A program made the position numbers and the translations under genes. The notes beneath the pieces were generated by a model. The model did not search any database. It saw only the letters and a list, made by a program, of their open reading frames with translations, and had not been told where the DNA came from. Below, piece by piece: positions 39,628-48,796 of a stretch of 64,000 nucleotides of DNA (its first letter is position 1; each line of letters opens with the position of its first letter). The DNA is taken from assembly GCF_012271765.1 (NCBI RefSeq), contig NZ_VRKO01000018.1, forward strand, positions 62,001-126,000. Direction: 5' to 3'. This DNA is from Erwinia rhapontici (GTDB lineage: Bacteria > Pseudomonadota > Gammaproteobacteria > Enterobacterales > Enterobacteriaceae).

Positions 39628-40206
<579 letters not shown>

Positions 40207-40258
40207 GTGACCCATTCTGAGGTGCTGCCGCGTTAATCGCCAGCAGTACCGCTACGCC

Positions 40259-40288
40259 AAACCGGACTGCTTTCAGTCCGGTTTTTTT
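40259..40288 (+). terminator. Terminator of infA
   Basis: AAACCGGACTG and CAGTCCGGTTT form a perfect 11-bp stem with a CTTT loop and a T-run. An exact copy of the hairpin lies at 42989-43018. Confidence 0.87.
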
Positions 40289-40403
40289 ACGCCTGAAATA
40301 TAGTGATTCGTGCCCCTAAAGTGCCGTTGCCTCCTTGCCGATAAATCAGATAATTCTTAAAAAATGGGTACCTCAACCTTATAATTCTGATGGTGGCAAA
40401 TAA

Positions 40404-42863
40404 ATGATAAGAACGCTGCACTCTTTCCCTCTTAAACCGCTGGTTATTGCACTGGCGGCGGCTCAAAGTCTGACGTCTCTGGCACATGCCATCCCAACAC
40501 AGACTGAGCAGGTTGTTGACGCCAGTTATAGCTATACGACAACACTGAGCCCCACTACTGATATTCTGACGTTCACACCTGACGCCAACTTTTCCATCTC
40601 CAGCATTGCGGTAAATAACCAGCAGCATACCCAACGGGTGGATAATCAGGGCATTCTCAACTCGATTTACTCATCGACGCTGATGAACCAGGGGATCATC
40701 GACACCCTGCGCAATTCAGGTCAGCTCACTATTGGTTCCAACAGTGGAATGGTTTTATCGGGCGGCGCGATTTACAACACCAATAACGCCACCATTACTA
40801 ACCTGATTAACAGCGGTACCATCAGTACCAATGGTACGTCTATGCCGATGCCCGGTATGGGAGCTGCGGGGATTCAGAACAATGGAATCATTACGACACT
40901 GACTAATCAGGCGCTCGGCACTATTTCCAGCACTAATACGGCCATCTTCAATTCAGGTACCATTACCGAGCTGAACAACGAGGGCACCATTCGTCAGTTG
41001 GGTAATAGCAACATCTATATTGGAACGGCTATCACCAACTACGGCACGCTGACGACCCTTAATAACAGCGGTACTATCATCGGGAATGTCACCAGTTACT
41101 CCATGACCGACCTGGTGATAAACGGTGGGAACATCCGACGTGGCATACTGACCGGCATCACAAGTGATTCGATAATCTTACCAAACTCAACGCTCGGTAC
41201 ACTGGGCAGTTACAATGCTAATCTCGCTTTCCAGCAGGGCAAGCTTTGGTTGAATGATAATGTCGGGCTCGGCAGCAACGGTACACTGACCAATAGCGCT
41301 GACGTTCTGATTACCCAACCGGTAAACATTAATGGGAATTATCATCAAACTGCTGCGGCCGTCCTGAATATTGGTGTTACCGACTTTACAAACGCTAACG
41401 GCAGCACTCTCGATGTGGGCTACGGCCGCCTGAACGTGAATGGCAATGCACAGATAGACCCTGGGTCGTCCATTCGCTTAACCAGTACTGGCAGCAGCTA
41501 TGGTTTCGCCAGCGGCCAGCGCTATGTAGTGATCAATGCCACCACGGCCGATTATAATGCCGCCATGCTGCATTACAGCGCTGACACGTTTAATGGGACA
41601 GTGACAGGTGCAGCGATTAGCGACGAAGTCAATAATACCAATAACCTGGTCGTTTATCTGTCCGGCGGTAATAACAGCGGTGGCGGTAATAACAACGGTG
41701 GCGGCAATACGCCAAAGCCGGGTAAACCGCTTCCGACGACGGGCAATGCCATCTCGTCACTGAATGGTCTGTCGAGCTACAGCGGCATCTCTTCCCCTGC
41801 GCTGCTGAATCTGTTCAACGCCTCAAAAACCATCACCACGGAAGCGGAAGCCAACCGCATCGGCGAGCAGCTTTCGCCAGGCCAGAACAGCATGGCGTCC
41901 GCCGCCACCTCGGCCGCATCCATGGATGCCCTGGGCGTCGTTGGCACGCATCTGGACGGCCTGCGCATCACCCCGGGCGCCAGCGCACGCGGTATCGCCA
42001 CCGGTGATGACAGCCTCGACTGGGCCGCCTGGGGCAAACCGTTCTACGGCAGCGCGCGTCAGGGCATGGTCGATAACGTCAGCGGTTACCGCGCACATTA
42101 CGGCGGCCTGGTGCTGGGTGCCGACCGTCAGATTCTGGACAGCTGGCGTGCCGGTGCGGCGTTAAGCTACAGCCGCACCTCCGTTAAAGGCCAGGATAAC
42201 GTGAAAGGCAGCAGCAGCGACGTTGACGCATGGGGCGGCATTCTCTATGCCACCTACAGCGGCGAGCCGTGGTTCGTCAACCTCAGCACCAGCCTGACCC
42301 GCCAGTCTTATGACAGCCAGCGTCAGGTGGCCTTCGACGGCTTCAACGACAACGCCAGCGCGCACTTTACCGGGCAGCAGGTGGCACTGAAGTCGGAGGT
42401 CGGTTATCCGCTGGCATTAGGGGCTAACACCACACTGACCCCGCTGGCCAGCCTGAGCTACAGCTACCTGCATCAGGGCAGCTACCAGGAAAACAGCGAC
42501 AATGGCAGTGCGCTGGATGTCGACAGCGCGCACAGCCAGTCGGTCGAAAGCAGCCTCGGCGGTAAACTGGCGCACAGCTGGTCAACGCCTGCCGGCGACC
42601 TGTCTCCGTTTGTCCAGGTGATGTGGACCCATCAGTACGATCGCAGCCCGATGACCACTAACTCCGGTTTCAGCGCGGACAGCCTGGGGGAAACCCGCTT
42701 TACCTCACAGGGCGCCCGCCAGGCTGCAGACAGTGCGGATACCAGCGTTGGTGTTTCACTGGCCCATGCCGACGACCTGACGCTGGAAGCGCGGTACGAC
42801 CTGCAAACTGCACCGCAGTTCATGGGTCAGACCGTCAGCCTGCAAGTGCGTAAGCTGTTCTAA
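40404..42863 (+). CDS. Autotransporter (type Va) with beta-helix passenger, copy 1
   Basis: Predicted self-secreted outer-membrane protein of 819 residues. Signal peptide: MIRTLHSFPLKPLVIALAAA..LAHA, cleavage near residue 29. The passenger (about 30-420) has many short L-x-NSGTI-type repeats (LINSGTIST, LNNSGTIIG, FNSGTITELNNEG) expected of a right-handed beta-helix, with a C-terminal YHQTAAAVLNIGV..GRLNVNG segment. A Gly/Asn linker (SGGGNNNGGGN, about 423-434) joins it to the autotransporter barrel (about 545-819), which ends in the outer-membrane signature F (LQVRKLF). Substrate or adhesive role is unknown; no protease or lipase motif seen. It ends against a relic of the lipoprotein gene and a duplicate terminator. 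Confidence 0.88.
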   Translation: MIRTLHSFPLKPLVIALAAAQSLTSLAHAIPTQTEQVVDASYSYTTTLSPTTDILTFTPDANFSISSIAVNNQQHTQRVDNQGILNSIYSSTLMNQGIIDTLRNSGQLTIGSNSGMVLSGGAIYNTNNATITNLINSGTISTNGTSMPMPGMGAAGIQNNGIITTLTNQALGTISSTNTAIFNSGTITELNNEGTIRQLGNSNIYIGTAITNYGTLTTLNNSGTIIGNVTSYSMTDLVINGGNIRRGILTGITSDSIILPNSTLGTLGSYNANLAFQQGKLWLNDNVGLGSNGTLTNSADVLITQPVNINGNYHQTAAAVLNIGVTDFTNANGSTLDVGYGRLNVNGNAQIDPGSSIRLTSTGSSYGFASGQRYVVINATTADYNAAMLHYSADTFNGTVTGAAISDEVNNTNNLVVYLSGGNNSGGGNNNGGGNTPKPGKPLPTTGNAISSLNGLSSYSGISSPALLNLFNASKTITTEAEANRIGEQLSPGQNSMASAATSAASMDALGVVGTHLDGLRITPGASARGIATGDDSLDWAAWGKPFYGSARQGMVDNVSGYRAHYGGLVLGADRQILDSWRAGAALSYSRTSVKGQDNVKGSSSDVDAWGGILYATYSGEPWFVNLSTSLTRQSYDSQRQVAFDGFNDNASAHFTGQQVALKSEVGYPLALGANTTLTPLASLSYSYLHQGSYQENSDNGSALDVDSAHSQSVESSLGGKLAHSWSTPAGDLSPFVQVMWTHQYDRSPMTTNSGFSADSLGETRFTSQGARQAADSADTSVGVSLAHADDLTLEARYDLQTAPQFMGQTVSLQVRKLF

Positions 42864-42870
42864 GCCACGG

Positions 42871-42924
42871 GTGAAATTCATGCCCCCAGGCGTTGGATTA
42901 CTGCGGTGTAGTCTGCCGCAGTAA
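42871..42924 (+). pseudogene. Relic of the lipoprotein hydrolase gene start
   Basis: GTG-AAA-TTC followed by 14 more codons and TAA reads MKFMPPGVGLLRCSLPQ. It aligns with the first residues of the intact gene at 45603 (MKFTSRCVGLLWCSLLIG). The eight-base spacing after the autotransporter stop is the same. This marks the right end of the duplicated unit; a stop replaces the lipobox. Too short to be functional. Confidence 0.8.
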
Positions 42925-42927
42925 TCC
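42895..42927 (+). terminator. 12-bp perfect hairpin after autotransporter 1
   Basis: GGATTACTGCGG and CCGCAGTAATCC are exact reverse complements, 9 bases apart, inside and just past the relic. No U-tract, so a transcription stop here is uncertain; it may protect the message end. The intact lipoprotein gene lacks the right arm. Confidence 0.55.
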
Positions 42928-42988
42928 TGCTGCAAAAGTGGTGCCTCTGGCTTCTATACCGGGGCGCTGCCTGCAGTACCGCTACGCC

Positions 42989-43018
42989 AAACCGGACTGC
43001 TTTCAGTCCGGTTTTTTT
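42989..43018 (+). terminator. Duplicate of the infA terminator, between the autotransporters
   Basis: Same hairpin as 40259-40288 (AAACCGGACTG, CTTT loop, CAGTCCGGTTT, T-run) with no infA gene before it. It probably ends the transcript of autotransporter 1 and insulates copy 2. Confidence 0.85.
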
Positions 43019-43138
43019 ATGCCTGAAATATAGTGATTTGCACATCTAAAGTGCCTCTCAATGCTGCCGATAAATCAGATAATTCCTATAAAACGGACGG
43101 AGAAAACCGTCTTGTTAACTCTGATGGTGGCAAACACA

Positions 43139-45595
43139 ATGAATAAATCGCTGTATTCTTTCCCACTCAAGCCGCTGGTTGTTGCGCTGGCGGCGGCTCA
43201 ATGTTTTAACCTTGCTCACGCCGACCCGGCACAAACCGAAGAGATAATTAGTCACTCAGCTGTCATTAATCAGCTCACCGTCTCTACCGATATTCTGACG
43301 ATTGAGCCTGCGGCAACCTTGAGTTCAACTACCACATCCATGTCGTATCTTGCTACCGTAGCCAATATGAAAGATACCGATTTAGTGGATAATCAGGGCA
43401 GTATCTACAACGACTCCAAGCTTGCTTTCTATAACGGTGGCGGGGGAACGCTTTCCTCTCTGAAAAACTCAGGGGTAATGAACTCAACAGATTTCATTGC
43501 GCTGGAAAACGACAACACGATTGGTTCTCTGGTAAACAGCGGGCTAATCACCTCTGGCAACAACACATCAAGCACGTCGGATCCGATGTCAGGGATCGCT
43601 AACTTCGGTACGATCACTACGCTGACTAACACCGATACCGGTGAAATCATCGGGGGAACAAAAGCTATTTTTAACGTTGGCGTGATAACGACTCTGAATA
43701 ACGATGGTTATATTGGCGTGTATGGTAACGGGCTGAACTCATCTGATAGCATTGCCATTCTCAACAAAGGTACGATTGGCGCGATCAACAACAGCGGAAC
43801 CATCGCCGGTGACATTGTCAACAATACCAGTAATGCTCTGGTGATCAACGGGGGCGTAAATCGTCGCGGTTCGCTGATCGGTAGTAATCAGATGATTTAT
43901 TCATTCTCATTACCAACATCCTCACCGATTGGTGCGATAAACAGCACAGGGGCAGATGTGCGTTTCCAGACGGGACAGCTGCTGCTGAACGACAACGTGT
44001 ATCTGGGTGGCACTCATACCCTGACCAACAACGCTGATGTTCTGGTTAATGAGAGTCTGAAGGTCGACGGCAACTACCATCAGACCGCTAACGCGATCCT
44101 GCGTATTGGGGTTTCCGATGCCTCCCAGGCGCTGGGAAGCGCGCTGGATAGTGGCTATGGACGCCTGAACGTCAGAGGAAATGCGGTGATTGATGCAGGG
44201 TCTTCAATCAAATTACTCAATACAGGCAGCTATGGTTTTGCCGATGGTCAGCGCTATGTGGTGATCAAAGCCAGTACTGCCGATTATAATGCCAGCAAGC
44301 TGCACTACAGTGCTGACACGTTTAATGGCACAGTGACAGGTACAGCGATTAGCGACGAAGTCAGTAATACCGACAACCTGGTCGTCTATCTGTCCGGCGG
44401 TAATAACAGCGGTGGCGGTAATAACAACGGTGGTGGCAATACCCCAAGCACGGGCAGACCGCTTCCGACAACTGGCAATGCCATCTCGTCACTGAATGGT
44501 CTGTCGAGCTACAGCGGCATCTCCTCCCCTGCGCTGCTGAATCTCTTCAACGCCTCAAAAACCATCACCACGGAAGCAGAAGCCAACCGCATCGGCGAGC
44601 AGCTTTCGCCAGGCCAGAACAGCATGGCATCCGCCGCCACCTCGGCCGCATCCATGGATGCCCTGGGCGTCGTTGGCACGCATCTGGACGGCCTGCGCAT
44701 CACCCCGGGCGCCAGCGCACGTGGTGTCGCCACCGGTGACGACAGCCTCGACTGGGCAGCATGGGGCAAACCTTTCTACGGCAGCGCGCGTCAGGGCATG
44801 GTCGATAACGTCAGTGGTTACCGCGCCCATTACGGCGGCCTGGTGCTGGGTGCTGACCGTCAGATTCTGGATAGCTGGCGTGCCGGTGCGGCGTTAAGCT
44901 ACAGCCGCACCTCCGTTAAAGGCCAGGACAACGTCAAAGGCAGCAGCAGCGACGTTGACGCATGGGGCGGCATTCTTTATGCCACCTACAGCGGCGAGCC
45001 GTGGTTTGTTAACCTCAGCACCAGCCTGACCCGTCAGTCTTACGACAGCCAGCGTCAGGTGGCCTTCGACGGCTTCAACGACAACGCCAGCGCGCACTTT
45101 ACCGGGCAGCAGGTGGCACTGAAGTCGGAGGTCGGTTACCCGCTGGCATTAGGGGCTAACACCACCCTGACCCCGCTGGCCAGCCTGAGCTACAGCTACC
45201 TTCATCAGGGCAGCTATCAGGAAAATAGCGACAACGGCAGTGCGCTGGATGTCGACAGCGCCCACAGCCAGTCGGTCGAAAGCAGCCTCGGCGGTAAACT
45301 GGCGCACAGCTGGTCAACGCCTGCCGGCGACCTGTCTCCGTTTGTCCAGGTAATGTGGAGCCATCAGTACGATCGCAGCCCGATGACCACTAATTCCGGT
45401 TTCAGCGCGGACAGTCTGGGGGAAACCCGCTTTACCTCGCAGGGTGCCCGCCAGGCTGCAGACAGTGCAGATACCAGCGTCGGTGTTTCACTGGCTCATG
45501 CCGATGACCTGACCCTGGAAGCGCGTTACGACCTGCAAACTGCACCGCAGTTCATGGGTCAGACCGTCAGTCTGCAAGTGCGTAAGCTGTTCTAA
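43139..45595 (+). CDS. Autotransporter (type Va) with beta-helix passenger, copy 2
   Basis: Tandem paralogue of the preceding autotransporter, 818 residues from ATG 43139. An in-frame ATG at 43124 would add MVANT before the signal peptide (MNKSLYSFPLKPLVVALAAA..LAHA). The passenger keeps the plan (LVNSGLITS, LNNDGYIGV, INNSGTIAG) but its sequence differs over most of its length. Similarity rises from about residue 330, and from the PLPTTGN linker to the end (378 residues) only two residues differ from copy 1 (GIATG/GVATG, WTHQ/WSHQ). The stop is followed 7 bases later by the lipoprotein gene with no terminator between, so the two are probably co-transcribed. Confidence 0.88.
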   Translation: MNKSLYSFPLKPLVVALAAAQCFNLAHADPAQTEEIISHSAVINQLTVSTDILTIEPAATLSSTTTSMSYLATVANMKDTDLVDNQGSIYNDSKLAFYNGGGGTLSSLKNSGVMNSTDFIALENDNTIGSLVNSGLITSGNNTSSTSDPMSGIANFGTITTLTNTDTGEIIGGTKAIFNVGVITTLNNDGYIGVYGNGLNSSDSIAILNKGTIGAINNSGTIAGDIVNNTSNALVINGGVNRRGSLIGSNQMIYSFSLPTSSPIGAINSTGADVRFQTGQLLLNDNVYLGGTHTLTNNADVLVNESLKVDGNYHQTANAILRIGVSDASQALGSALDSGYGRLNVRGNAVIDAGSSIKLLNTGSYGFADGQRYVVIKASTADYNASKLHYSADTFNGTVTGTAISDEVSNTDNLVVYLSGGNNSGGGNNNGGGNTPSTGRPLPTTGNAISSLNGLSSYSGISSPALLNLFNASKTITTEAEANRIGEQLSPGQNSMASAATSAASMDALGVVGTHLDGLRITPGASARGVATGDDSLDWAAWGKPFYGSARQGMVDNVSGYRAHYGGLVLGADRQILDSWRAGAALSYSRTSVKGQDNVKGSSSDVDAWGGILYATYSGEPWFVNLSTSLTRQSYDSQRQVAFDGFNDNASAHFTGQQVALKSEVGYPLALGANTTLTPLASLSYSYLHQGSYQENSDNGSALDVDSAHSQSVESSLGGKLAHSWSTPAGDLSPFVQVMWSHQYDRSPMTTNSGFSADSLGETRFTSQGARQAADSADTSVGVSLAHADDLTLEARYDLQTAPQFMGQTVSLQVRKLF

Positions 45596-45602
45596 GCCAC
45601 GG

Positions 45603-46430
45603 GTGAAATTCACATCCCGTTGCGTTGGGTTACTGTGGTGCAGCCTGCTCATCGGTTGCGCCACCGATAACCGAGTTGTCACCGCCGACGCCATTGCGCG
45701 TGCGGCGGGTTTACAGCAGGGTGAAATCAACTCCGCCCCCTTTGTACTCAGCTGGTGGGGGCGCATTCGCGATCCTCAGCAGCCTGTGCATCTCTATATT
45801 GAAGGTGATGGTTTTGCCTGGGTCACTCCCAGTCAGCCCTCACGCGATCCCACCCCGTTTAACCCTACTGCGCTTAAACTTGCCGCTGCCGACCCTGCCC
45901 TGAATGTGGTCTATCTGGCACGTCCCTGCCAGTACATCCCAATGACGCGCAATCCCGTCTGTAACAAGAGCTGGTGGACCGACCGCCGCTTTGCTCCAGA
46001 GGTGATTAATGCAATGAATAATGCCATCACACAGATTGCCCGCCAGGCCCCCGGTCAGCCGCTCGTGCTGGTAGGCTACTCGGGTGGTGGTGCGGTGGCT
46101 GCGTTAGTCACGGCGCGGCGCCATGATGTGCAGTCGCTGCGCACGGTGGCGGGAAATCTCGATATGGATGAGGTGAACCGTCTGCATCAGGCCAGCCCGA
46201 TGCCACAGTCGCTGAATGCCAAAGACGTTGCCCCAAGGCTGTCAGGGCTGCCACAGATCCACTTCTCTGGCAGTGAGGATCGGGTGGTGCCGCACAGCGT
46301 GGCACAAGGCTATGCGGATGCCAGCCACTCTTCCTGCGTACAAATCGTTGAGGTTCCTGGGCTGACACACGGGGGTCATTGGGAAACGCACTGGACCGCC
46401 CTACTGGCGCAACAGCCCGCCTGTAAATAG
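45603..46430 (+). CDS. Putative lipoprotein alpha/beta hydrolase
   Basis: A 275-residue product from a GTG start. The start is fixed by the lipoprotein signal MKFTSRCVGLLWCSLLIGC, lipobox cysteine C19, followed by A-T-D (no +2 Asp, so outer-membrane sorting is expected). The alpha/beta hydrolase fold is suggested by the nucleophile elbow VLVGYSGGG (S160), GSEDRVVP (D226) and THGGHW (H256 or H259) in the right order for a Ser-Asp-His triad. Reaction and substrate are unknown. It begins 7 bases after autotransporter 2. It could act on envelope lipids, glycans or the secreted passenger; only co-transcription supports the link. Confidence 0.8.
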   Translation: MKFTSRCVGLLWCSLLIGCATDNRVVTADAIARAAGLQQGEINSAPFVLSWWGRIRDPQQPVHLYIEGDGFAWVTPSQPSRDPTPFNPTALKLAAADPALNVVYLARPCQYIPMTRNPVCNKSWWTDRRFAPEVINAMNNAITQIARQAPGQPLVLVGYSGGGAVAALVTARRHDVQSLRTVAGNLDMDEVNRLHQASPMPQSLNAKDVAPRLSGLPQIHFSGSEDRVVPHSVAQGYADASHSSCVQIVEVPGLTHGGHWETHWTALLAQQPACK

Positions 46431-46488: not shown

Positions 46489-48765
46489 TTAATGCACGGT
46501 CCCCTCCGCTTTACGCTTCTGTGCACTCAGGAAGTGATAGGTCAGTTGGTTTTTATCTTTATCCAGCGCCACCGACACCGATCCCCCATCAACCAGTGAA
46601 CCAAACAGCAGCTCATTGGCTAACGGTTTCTTCAGGCTCTCCTGAACGGTACGGGCCATTGGGCGTGCGCCCATTGCCTTGTCGTAGCCTTTCTCTGCCA
46701 GCCAGTCACGGGCGTCATCACTGACTTCCAGCGAGACACCTTTCGCATCCAACTGGGCCTGGAGTTCGACGATAAACTTGTCGACAACCTGATGGATCAC
46801 GACCTGGTCGAGATGTTTGAACCAGATAATATTATCCAGACGGTTACGGAACTCTGGTGTGAAGATCTTTTTGATCTCTTCCATCGCATCGGTACTGTTG
46901 TCCTGCTGGATCAGGCCGATAGATTTACGTTCGGTTTCACGTACCCCGGCGTTCGTGGTCATCACGACCACCACATTACGGAAGTCCGCTTTACGGCCGT
47001 TATTATCCGTCAGCATGCCGTTATCCATCACCTGCAACAGCAGGTTGAAGACATCCGGATGCGCTTTCTCAATCTCATCCAGCAACACCACCGCATGCGG
47101 ATGTTTGATCACCGCATCGGTTAACAGGCCGCCCTGATCGAAACCAACATAGCCCGGAGGCGCACCAATCAGACGACTGACGGTGTGACGTTCCATATAC
47201 TCGGACATGTCAAAACGCAGCAGCTCAATACCCAACGCTTTCGCCAGCTGAACCGTTACCTCGGTTTTCCCAACACCGGTCGGGCCGGCAAACAGGAAGG
47301 AACCAACAGGTTTACGATCCTGGCCCAAACCTGCACGGCTCATTTTGATCGCTTCGGTCAGCACTTCAATGGCATTATCCTGGCCAAATACCAGCATCTT
47401 CAAGCGATCGCCGAGCGTTTTCAGTGAATCACGGTCGGAAGCCGACACGCTCTTCTCAGGAATACGGGCAATACGCGCCACCACCGTTTCGATATCCGAC
47501 ACGTTGACGGTTTTTTTGCGTTTGCTGACCGGCATCAGACGCGCACGGGCACCGGCTTCATCAATAACGTCAATCGCCTTATCGGGCAGATGACGGTCGT
47601 TGATGTATTTCACCGCCAGCTCCACCGCCGCACGCACCGCTTTTGCGGTGTAACGAACGTCGTGGTGCGCTTCGTACTTCGGCTTCAGACCATTGATGAT
47701 CTGCACCGTTTCCTCAACCGTTGGCTCAGTAATATCAATTTTCTGGAAGCGACGTGCCAGCGCACGATCTTTTTCGAAAATATTACTGAATTCCTGGTAA
47801 GTGGTAGAACCCATCACGCGAATTTTCCCACCCGACAGCAGCGGTTTAATCAGATTTGCGGCATCCACCTGGCCGCCTGATGCCGCGCCAGCACCAATAA
47901 TCGTATGAATTTCATCGATAAACAGAATGCTGCTGGTGTCCTGCTCAAGCTGTTTCAGTAACGCTTTAAAGCGTTTCTCAAAGTCACCACGGTATTTAGT
48001 GCCCGCCAGCAGAGAACCAATATCCAGTGAATAGATGGTGCAATCTTTCATCACTTCCGGCACATCACCCTGCACAATACGCCAGGCAAGACCTTCCGCA
48101 ATTGCCGTTTTACCGACCCCAGATTCGCCCACCAGCAGTGGATTATTTTTACGACGGCGGCAGAGAACCTGAACGGCGCGTTCCAGCTCTTTATCACGGC
48201 CGATCAGCGGGTCAATACCGCCAACACGAGCAAGCTGGTTAAGGTTGGTGGTGAAGTTTTCCATACGTTCCTCCCCGCCTGCTTGCTCTTCATTAACCGG
48301 ATTCTCAGCACCCGATGCCGGGCCTGGTTCATCTTTGCGTGTGCCGTGTGAGATGTAGTTCACCACATCAAGACGACTGACTTCATGTTTGCGCAGCAGA
48401 TAAGCAGCCTGCGACTCCTGCTCGCTAAAGATCGCGACCAGTACGTTAGCGCCCGCAACTTCGCTGCGGCCGGATGACTGCACGTGGAAAACAGCACGTT
48501 GCAGTACGCGTTGGAAACTTAGCGTCGGCTGTGTGTCGCGCTCTTCTTCGCTGACCGGCAAGACCGGGGTGGTTTGTTCAATGAAAGCTTCGAGCTCCTG
48601 CCGTAACGCGACAATATCCACCGTACAGGCTTCCAGTGCCTCTCTGGCCGACGGGTTACTGAGCAATGCCAGTAACAAATGCTCGACGGTCATAAACTCA
48701 TGTCGGTGCTCGCGCGCTCTGGCGAAAGCCATGTTTAAACTGAGTTCCAGTTCTTGATTGAGCAT
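46489..48765 (-). CDS. clpA: ATP-dependent Clp protease ATP-binding subunit ClpA
   Basis: Hexameric unfoldase feeding ClpP; degrades N-degron and other substrates. The start at ATG 48765 follows a strong GGGGGAGGTGCC site and gives 758 residues, the E. coli length. Order: Clp N-domain, AAA-1 (Walker [10 protein letters not shown], Walker [11 protein letters not shown]), AAA-2 (Walker [10 protein letters not shown], Walker [12 protein letters not shown]), and C-terminal domain. The IGL loop for ClpP docking appears as KSIGLIQQ. Downstream of clpS on the same strand. Confidence 0.98.
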
Positions 48766-48796
48766 AGGCACCTCCCCCACAAATAGATCGCCTTAT

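What the first reader, a model, noticed from the sequence alone, without database searches (positions are those of the whole stretch)
40243..45650. Tandem duplication that captured the infA terminator and the start of a lipoprotein gene
Two adjacent copies of a unit of about 2730 bases are directly visible. Each begins with CAGTACCGCTACGCC and the infA-type terminator, continues through matching upstream DNA and an autotransporter gene, and ends in the first codons of the lipoprotein hydrolase gene. Copy 1 therefore ends in a relic (MKF....VGLL.CSL) and copy 2 in the intact gene. This explains why an infA terminator stands between two autotransporter genes and dates the duplication after the autotransporter-hydrolase pair had formed.
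Basis: seen in the sequence. Interest (0 to 1): 0.8.

Follow-up and report, generated by a model that had tools for sequence, protein, structure and literature searches.

The report
Duplicated autotransporter gene with swapped passengers
In an Erwinia genome a gene for a surface protein, together with its likely on-switch, the stop signal of the gene before it and the first codons of the gene after it, was copied head to tail, and the two copies now carry outer parts from different allele lineages, so the cell could show two versions of the same surface protein.

Summary
Unit 1 (40243-42917) and unit 2 (42973-45649) share a 47-nt identical block with the infA terminator, an upstream region, an autotransporter gene and the first codons of the lipoprotein-hydrolase gene. 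Copy 1 ends in a relic with a stop at codon 18; copy 2 runs into the intact gene. The predicted ancestral states exist. Of 30 Erwinia infA loci examined (of 37 genomes), clpA follows infA within 88-336 bp in 24; the other six carry the cassette, five once, only the window twice.

The beta-domains are 99.5% identical (dS 0.12-0.20, against about 1 to a near relative), but the passengers are 49% identical with dS saturated. Trees reject AT1 and AT2 as sister passengers, so one copy received, or was born with, a different allele.

The unit also carries a promoter matching the flagellar sigma-28 (FliA) consensus. In 37 Erwinia genomes this motif occurs only in the six carriers, once per cassette autotransporter. 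Six of seven other consensus-like sites in the own genome precede chemotaxis, YcgR or c-di-GMP genes. Predicted result: two separately terminated FliA-type units, only the second keeping the hydrolase. FliA dependence is untested.

The parts
39988..40206 (+). infA (translation initiation factor IF-1), left neighbour
   Evidence: Query: matched in 37 of 37 genus genomes; sequence
40243..42917 (+). Unit 1 of the tandem duplication (infA-side copy)
40243..40289 (+). 47-nt block identical in both units: infA downstream DNA plus the infA terminator (11-bp stem, T tract)
   Evidence: infA is followed by the same terminator type in the five single-copy relatives
40317..40344 (+). sigma-28-type promoter of AT1: TAAAGTGC-N12-GCCGATAA (spacer one base longer than in AT2 and the five relatives)
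40404..42863 (+). AT1, type Va autotransporter, 819 aa; beta-domain residues 542-799
   Evidence: Pfam PF03797 197.6 bits
42864..42917 (+). Relic: last matching stretch of unit 1, start of the hydrolase gene (GTG at 42871; its frame ends in a stop at 42922-42924)
42895..42927 (+). Perfect 12-bp inverted repeat with 9-nt loop; left arm is relic, right arm lies where hydrolase sequence would continue
   Evidence: (0 of 2000 shuffles reach 12 bp; largest 9)
42918..42972 (+). Junction DNA with no detectable homology to either edge (tested 42918-42970) or elsewhere in the genome
42973..45649 (+). Unit 2 of the tandem duplication
42989..43019 (+). Captured copy of the infA terminator between AT1 and AT2
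43047..43073 (+). sigma-28-type promoter of AT2: TAAAGTGC-N11-GCCGATAA
43139..45595 (+). AT2, type Va autotransporter, 818 aa from the conserved start (open frame runs back to 43061)
45603..46430 (+). Intact lipoprotein alpha/beta-hydrolase gene, GTG start with 7 nt between it and the AT2 stop
   Evidence: Pfam Hydrolase_4 35.4 bits over cut-off 27
46489..48780 (-). clpA, right neighbour (convergent)
   Evidence: its C-terminal part used as probe; gene name recalled

Best explanation
Erwinia ancestors had a cassette between infA and clpA: sigma-28-type promoter, autotransporter, lipoprotein alpha/beta-hydrolase. In the window's lineage, after it split from the E. sorbitola / E. persicina lineages, the DNA from about 36 nt behind the infA stop to about codon 16 of the hydrolase was duplicated in tandem. 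The join put a second infA terminator and a second sigma-28-type promoter between the two autotransporter genes and left a dead hydrolase start behind the first. Shown by sequence: both edges, the relic, the empty, single and tandem states, and the promoter motif. Inferred: AT1 is transcribed alone from its own FliA-type promoter and stops at the captured terminator, while AT2 and the hydrolase form a second, independently started transcript. The passengers of the two copies come from different, older allele lineages, so one passenger was replaced by recombination with another allele, or the duplication itself joined two alleles. Either way the genome now codes for two variants of one surface or secreted protein on a nearly constant secretion domain.
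For: Edges and relic. Three states of the locus: of 30 infA loci held (37 genomes), 24 have clpA 88-336 bp behind infA and 6 do not; 5 of those 6 have one autotransporter-hydrolase pair (in G013 the gene is split over two contigs). Age: AT1-AT2 beta dS 0.121, 0.170 and 0.204, against 0.80-1.22 for AT1-G020 and 1.03 for aat window-G020. The beta-domain DNA tree pairs AT1 with AT2, support 94. Passenger: 49.4% aa identity, dS 1.45 or more or undefined in four windows. AU test against AT1+AT2: p 2.5e-7 on proteins and 0.022 on DNA of species representatives; 1.5e-5 on the N-terminal variable part. Forcing AT1 together with all alleles of near-identical beta-domain is rejected too: 6.3e-4 and 3.3e-4. 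Proteins with beta-domains 98.6-100% identical to AT1 (P0002, P0003, P0006, P0007) carry other passengers. Promoter; consensus TAAAGTTT-n11-GCCGATAA seen in a passage of PMC2859248; fliA present.
Against: The 55 nt at the junction are unexplained, so the exact breakpoints and mechanism are not seen. Noncoding evidence is short: over the whole upstream flank the two copies match at 138/154, no better than G020 and G014 match each other (136/151); in the part with the promoter they match at 70/86 (15 gap columns), no closer than each is to G020 (71/85 and 75/91). AT1's promoter has a 12-nt spacer. No DNA of sister strains was available, so the order of duplication and passenger exchange is open. 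At protein level AT1's beta-domain equals that of allele P0006 (100%) and does not stand apart from all AT2-type alleles, which hints at exchange between the copies.
Confidence: 0.85

Rival explanations
1. Plain tandem duplication: both genes are copies of one gene and the passengers drifted apart by point mutation after the event.
For: Edges, relic and single-copy relatives.
Against: dS 0.12-0.20 in the beta-domain against saturation in the passenger of the same gene pair; AT1+AT2 as sister passengers rejected; the N-terminal variable part of AT2 groups with P0014, whose beta-domain is only 94-95% identical.
Confidence: 0.05
2. Allele addition (one of the two sub-cases left open in the best explanation): the second unit came in as DNA from another strain with another passenger and was joined beside the resident unit, so the passengers differed at birth.
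For: Several passenger lineages exist on nearly identical beta-domains; in the promoter part of the upstream DNA the two copies are no closer to each other than to G020.
Against: The 47-nt edge block is identical, and beta-domain and relic divergence fit one recent event; no donor sequence with a comparable junction was found, but the DNA around the other alleles could not be fetched.
Confidence: 0.35
3. Old pair: the tandem arrangement is older than the species, beta-domains and terminator block were homogenised by gene conversion, and relatives lost one copy.
For: Passengers are older than the species split; AT1's beta-domain is identical in protein to that of allele P0006.
Against: All five relatives with the cassette are single and would each, or in their ancestors, have had to lose a copy without trace. 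The relic matches the window's own hydrolase at 43/54, G020's at 37/54, G004's at 33/54 and G003's at 31/54; G014's gives 34/42 but with 24 gap columns, so this is weak.
Confidence: 0.1
4. Assembly artefact joining two dispersed genes.
For: The window genome is a draft of 19 contigs with a repeated beta-domain.
Against: The junction holds unique DNA and the two passengers differ; AT1's protein cluster has 9 member sequences on 10 contigs, the longest 5,248,860 bases; both flanks are syntenic with relatives.
Confidence: 0.02

Closest known systems
Antigen 43 (agn43/flu) of Escherichia coli, a self-associating type Va autotransporter (PMC10058404, passages seen)
   Same: Several copies per genome with different passenger classes on a conserved translocator; classes arise by domain shuffling within the passenger.
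   Different: Here the copies are head to tail at one chromosomal site with a visible relic and captured terminator, the promoter is of sigma-28 type, and a lipoprotein hydrolase follows. Membership of the Ag43 family was not tested and is not claimed.
FliA (sigma-28) promoters such as aer and trg of E. coli (PMC2859248, passages)
   Same: TAAAG in the -35 octamer, GCCGATAA in the -10 octamer, 11-nt spacer in AT2 and all five relatives; 14 of 16 consensus positions.
   Different: Precedes an autotransporter rather than a motility or chemotaxis gene; AT1's spacer is 12; activity untested.
AidA- and pertactin-like autotransporters EbC_25980 and EbC_37340 of Erwinia billingiae (PMC2897811, passages)
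   Same: Type V autotransporters of an epiphytic Erwinia, thought by those authors to act in adherence.
   Different: Not shown to be the same genes; the two passages seen mention no tandem pair and no sigma-28 control.

Membership tests
Type Va autotransporter | C-terminal autotransporter beta-barrel domain | tested here: met
   PF03797, 197.6 bits each; TIGR01414 97.7 and 96.9 bits over cut-off 16
Type Va autotransporter | N-terminal signal peptide | tested here: inconclusive
   Read by eye only in the translations; no predictor was run
Type Va autotransporter | Beta-helical passenger | not testable with these tools
FliA (sigma-28) promoter | Match to TAAAGTTT-n11-GCCGATAA | tested here: met
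   14 of 16 positions at 43047 with spacer 11 and at 40317 with spacer 12; the 12-nt spacer of AT1 departs from the consensus
FliA (sigma-28) promoter | Motif specific and conserved | tested here: met
   TAAAGTGC-N10-12-GCCGATAA in 6 of 37 genus genomes, 7 sites, one before each cassette autotransporter, reversed control 0 of 37; own genome, looser pattern, 9 sites against 1 control; family sample 2 of 149 genomes, reversed control also 2 of 149
FliA (sigma-28) promoter | Sigma factor present | tested here: met
   TIGR02479 279.3 bits over cut-off 189.6 at G000:C6:582590
FliA (sigma-28) promoter | Transcription depends on FliA | not testable with these tools
   Needs a reporter or RNA data
Tandem duplication | Homology beyond the coding sequence at both edges, with single-copy relatives | tested here: met
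Ag43 (self-associating autotransporters) | L-shaped self-associating passenger | not tested
   No structure or phenotype available
Lipoprotein alpha/beta-hydrolase | Hydrolase fold and lipobox | tested here: inconclusive
   Hydrolase_4 35.4 bits over cut-off 27; lipobox-like LIGC and GYSGG seen by eye; activity untested

The most novel reading that the evidence does not exclude
The infA-clpA cassette is a polymorphic surface-antigen system of the flagellar regulon: a sigma-28-driven autotransporter whose exposed N-terminal passenger segregates as old lineages shared between Erwinia species while the secretion domain stays constant. The tandem duplication turned one such locus into a two-allele locus that displays two variants at once, with a dedicated lipoprotein hydrolase kept only for the second.
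Probability: 0.45. Interest if true: 0.7.

Novelty: new variant of a known kind. Interest (0 to 1): 0.5.

Why it matters
It gives a three-step natural series (empty, single, tandem) for how a surface-protein gene doubles while bringing its own promoter and a borrowed terminator, and shows that passenger exchange can be separated in age from the duplication. If the sigma-28 reading holds, it adds an autotransporter to the set of genes made by motile cells, which would link surface antigen variation to motility in plant-associated bacteria and is testable with one promoter fusion.

Tried and rejected
Relic as an unrelated gene start: rejected, 0 of 1000 shuffles, and its GTG lies at the same distance behind the autotransporter stop as in copy 2. 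Terminator as part of an inserted element unrelated to infA: in the five single-copy relatives the same terminator type directly follows infA; the 12 cassette-free loci that one search printed in the infA orientation have a different terminator (the remaining loci were printed in the other orientation and do not show it), so the terminator may have arrived with the cassette long ago, but in the window it is the one behind infA. Junction DNA as decayed hydrolase or infA sequence: no support; elsewhere in the genome only 14-19-nt matches. Gene conversion of the beta-domain as a necessity: not needed, since beta dS (0.12-0.20) and the relic (43/54) fit one age, but not excluded. The AU test with AT1+AT2 alone is partly trivial, because AT2 shares residues beyond about 240 with other alleles of near-identical beta-domain; hence the tests on species representatives, on the N-terminal part, and with those alleles grouped. 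sigma-70 scan: 4 found against a mean of 4.5 in shuffles, uninformative. Sigma-28 motif before the non-infA autotransporters (C6, G005, G033): none at 11 or more of 16 positions except one at 11 before G033's. In the family sample (149 genomes) one genome besides the window's own matched, as did 2 for the reversed control; its site (G145) has no open frame over 80 codons with a usual start within 350 nt downstream and was left aside as chance. Literature on a FliA-driven autotransporter: searches (20 of 342 papers listed; 15 of 228; 15 of 18; 1 of 1) show no title that reports one; passages of PMC5493296 and PMC11599158 do not either. Seen as passages only: PMC2897811, PMC2859248, PMC10058404, PMC5493296, PMC11599158; all other papers as listings. 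The library holds open-licence papers only, so this is no proof of absence.
Full report
OBSERVATION. The alignment of 40101-42990 with 42831-45800 and the repeat search show two head-to-tail units with a spacing of about 2730 bases. Unit 1 starts at 40243 and its last match is at 42917. Unit 2 starts at 42973 and its last match is at 45649. The first 47 nt are identical and hold the terminator. The first 70 nt match at 66 of 70; the remaining upstream DNA at 70 of 86 with 15 gap columns. Behind the autotransporter stop, 43 of 54 positions match and 0 of 1000 shuffles score as well. The relic starts with GTG at the same distance behind the stop as the hydrolase does and ends in a stop at its codon 18. 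The terminator pattern occurs only at these two places in the window.

WHAT IS ON EITHER SIDE. All 37 genus genomes have infA; loci were held for 30 of them. In 24 of these 30, clpA's C-terminal part lies 88-336 bp behind infA; in 6 it is not within the locus. Regions fetched for five of the six show one autotransporter and one hydrolase between infA and clpA (G013 is split over two contigs inside a proline-threonine repeat). The sixth is the window. In a tree of the 1500 bp upstream of infA, four carriers (window, G013, G014, G020) are close and G003+G004 are apart, with non-carriers between, so the cassette was either lost or gained more than once.

CAPTURE. Both window copies have GCAGTACCGCTACGCC before the terminator, while all five relatives differ there (for example GCAGCACCTGTAATCC in G020). 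This is infA downstream DNA, so unit 2's left edge came from behind infA. The 12 cassette-free loci printed in the infA orientation have other infA terminators.

PASSENGER AND BARREL HAVE DIFFERENT HISTORIES. AT1 and AT2 are 49.4% identical in residues 35-395 and 99.5% in 450-819. Synonymous divergence is 0.121, 0.170 and 0.204 in three beta-domain windows, 0.221 in the linker, 0.764 in the signal-peptide part, and 1.45 or more, or undefined, in four passenger windows. For scale, AT1-G020 beta dS is 0.80-1.22 and aat dS window-G020 is 1.03. The barrel DNA tree pairs AT1 with AT2 (support 94); the passenger DNA tree does not, with weak supports (33-78 at the deep nodes). The AU test against AT1+AT2 gives 2.5e-7 on 19 protein rows and 0.022 on 7 DNA rows, and 1.5e-5 on the N-terminal variable part; forcing AT1 together with AT2, P0002, P0003, P0006 and P0007 gives 6.3e-4 and 3.3e-4. 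Four rows that repeat others in the passenger (P0001, P0004, P0005, P0008) were dropped before the protein trees; P0010, P0011 and P0012 lack the barrel and are absent from the barrel tree.

A POOL OF ALLELES. Protein searches with residues 1-430 (149 and 194 hits, the best 120 of each listed, 8000 candidates scored) gave P0002, P0003, P0006 and P0007, whose beta-domains are 98.6-100% identical to AT1's but whose passengers differ. In the N-terminal variable part AT2 groups with P0014 (support 100; beta-domain only 94-95%), P0003/6/7 with G003/G004 (71), P0002 with P0009 (78; beta-domain 95%), and AT1 has no close partner (54 for its nearest). Whether P0002-P0007 come from the window's species is inferred from the beta-domain only; P0003 is labelled Serratia proteamaculans by its source and P0010 and P0012 Pseudomonas graminis, which look like misnamed records. 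The AT1 cluster has 9 member sequences and the AT2 cluster 11.

CONTROL REGION. Upstream of each autotransporter lies TAAAGTGC-N-GCCGATAA: 40317-40344 with spacer 12, 43047-43073 with spacer 11. The published consensus is TAAAGTTT-n11-GCCGATAA (PMC2859248, passage). With spacers 10-12 the exact motif occurs in 6 of 37 genus genomes at 7 sites, one before each cassette autotransporter, and the reversed control gives 0. In a sample of 149 family genomes, of which two are of this genus, it occurs in 2, the window's own and one other; the reversed control also occurs in 2, so the other one is at chance level. A looser pattern gives 9 sites in the own genome (control 1). Of the 7 that are not here, 6 precede a YcgR, an EAL, an MHYT-GGDEF and three chemoreceptor genes and 1 lies inside a long frame. 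The genome has fliA. I therefore read AT1 and AT2-hydrolase as members of the FliA regulon; this is inference from sequence.

HOW IT WORKS. AT1: own promoter, one gene, stops at the captured terminator (inferred). AT2 and hydrolase: own promoter, two genes (inferred). The captured terminator keeps the two units apart (inferred). The longer spacer of AT1 may weaken it (inferred). Products: two autotransporters with nearly the same barrel and different exposed parts; an adhesive or antigenic role is a guess from the family.

OPEN. The 55 nt at the junction match nothing. A perfect 12-bp inverted repeat (42895-42927; 0 of 2000 shuffles; -26.4 kcal/mol for 42890-42935) has its left arm in the relic and its right arm in register with lost hydrolase sequence; a fold-back copying error during or after the duplication would make this, but it is unproven. 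The order of duplication and passenger exchange is open. No fold could be predicted.

VERDICT. The duplication, capture and relic are real and the ancestral state is found. As a duplication it is ordinary. What raises it is that the duplicated unit is a sigma-28-type autotransporter cassette with interchangeable passengers. Nearest known case: Ag43 of E. coli, with multiple copies and passenger shuffling (PMC10058404, passages).

Noticed in passing
window 45603-46430 and loci L004-L083: Genes for this lipoprotein hydrolase often stand near autotransporter genes in unrelated bacteria: 53 of 80 hydrolase loci (the best 80 of 109 found) hold an autotransporter beta-domain, 16 of 80 directly upstream on the same strand (-7 to 345 nt), three of these Erwinia, others Pseudomonas, Omnitrophota and Halomonas-type genomes. 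No separate control set was run.
   Followed up: partly
window 42895-42927: Perfect 12-bp inverted repeat with one arm made of relic sequence, as if copied back from itself.
   Followed up: partly
window 40317-40344: AT1's sigma-28-type promoter has a 12-nt spacer, whereas AT2 and the five relatives have 11.
   Followed up: no
G000:C6:33767-35953 (L003, L144): A third, more distant autotransporter in the same genome (47% identical to AT1), without the sigma-28 motif in 500 nt upstream; no hydrolase-like frame of 150 codons or more seen by eye behind it.
   Followed up: partly
L142, L143: Two other Erwinia genomes (G005, G033) carry an autotransporter followed by a hydrolase-like gene (Hydrolase_4 24.7 bits for G005's, under the cut-off of 27) at a different site, behind a LysR-like gene (named by eye), without a sigma-28 motif.
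   Followed up: partly
P0010, P0012: Two partial autotransporters labelled Pseudomonas graminis with different passengers break off at the same residue of the barrel, as a collapsed repeat in another two-copy genome would.
   Followed up: no
window 1-64000: No tRNA gene in the window; in E. coli serW lies between infA and clpA (recalled).
   Followed up: no
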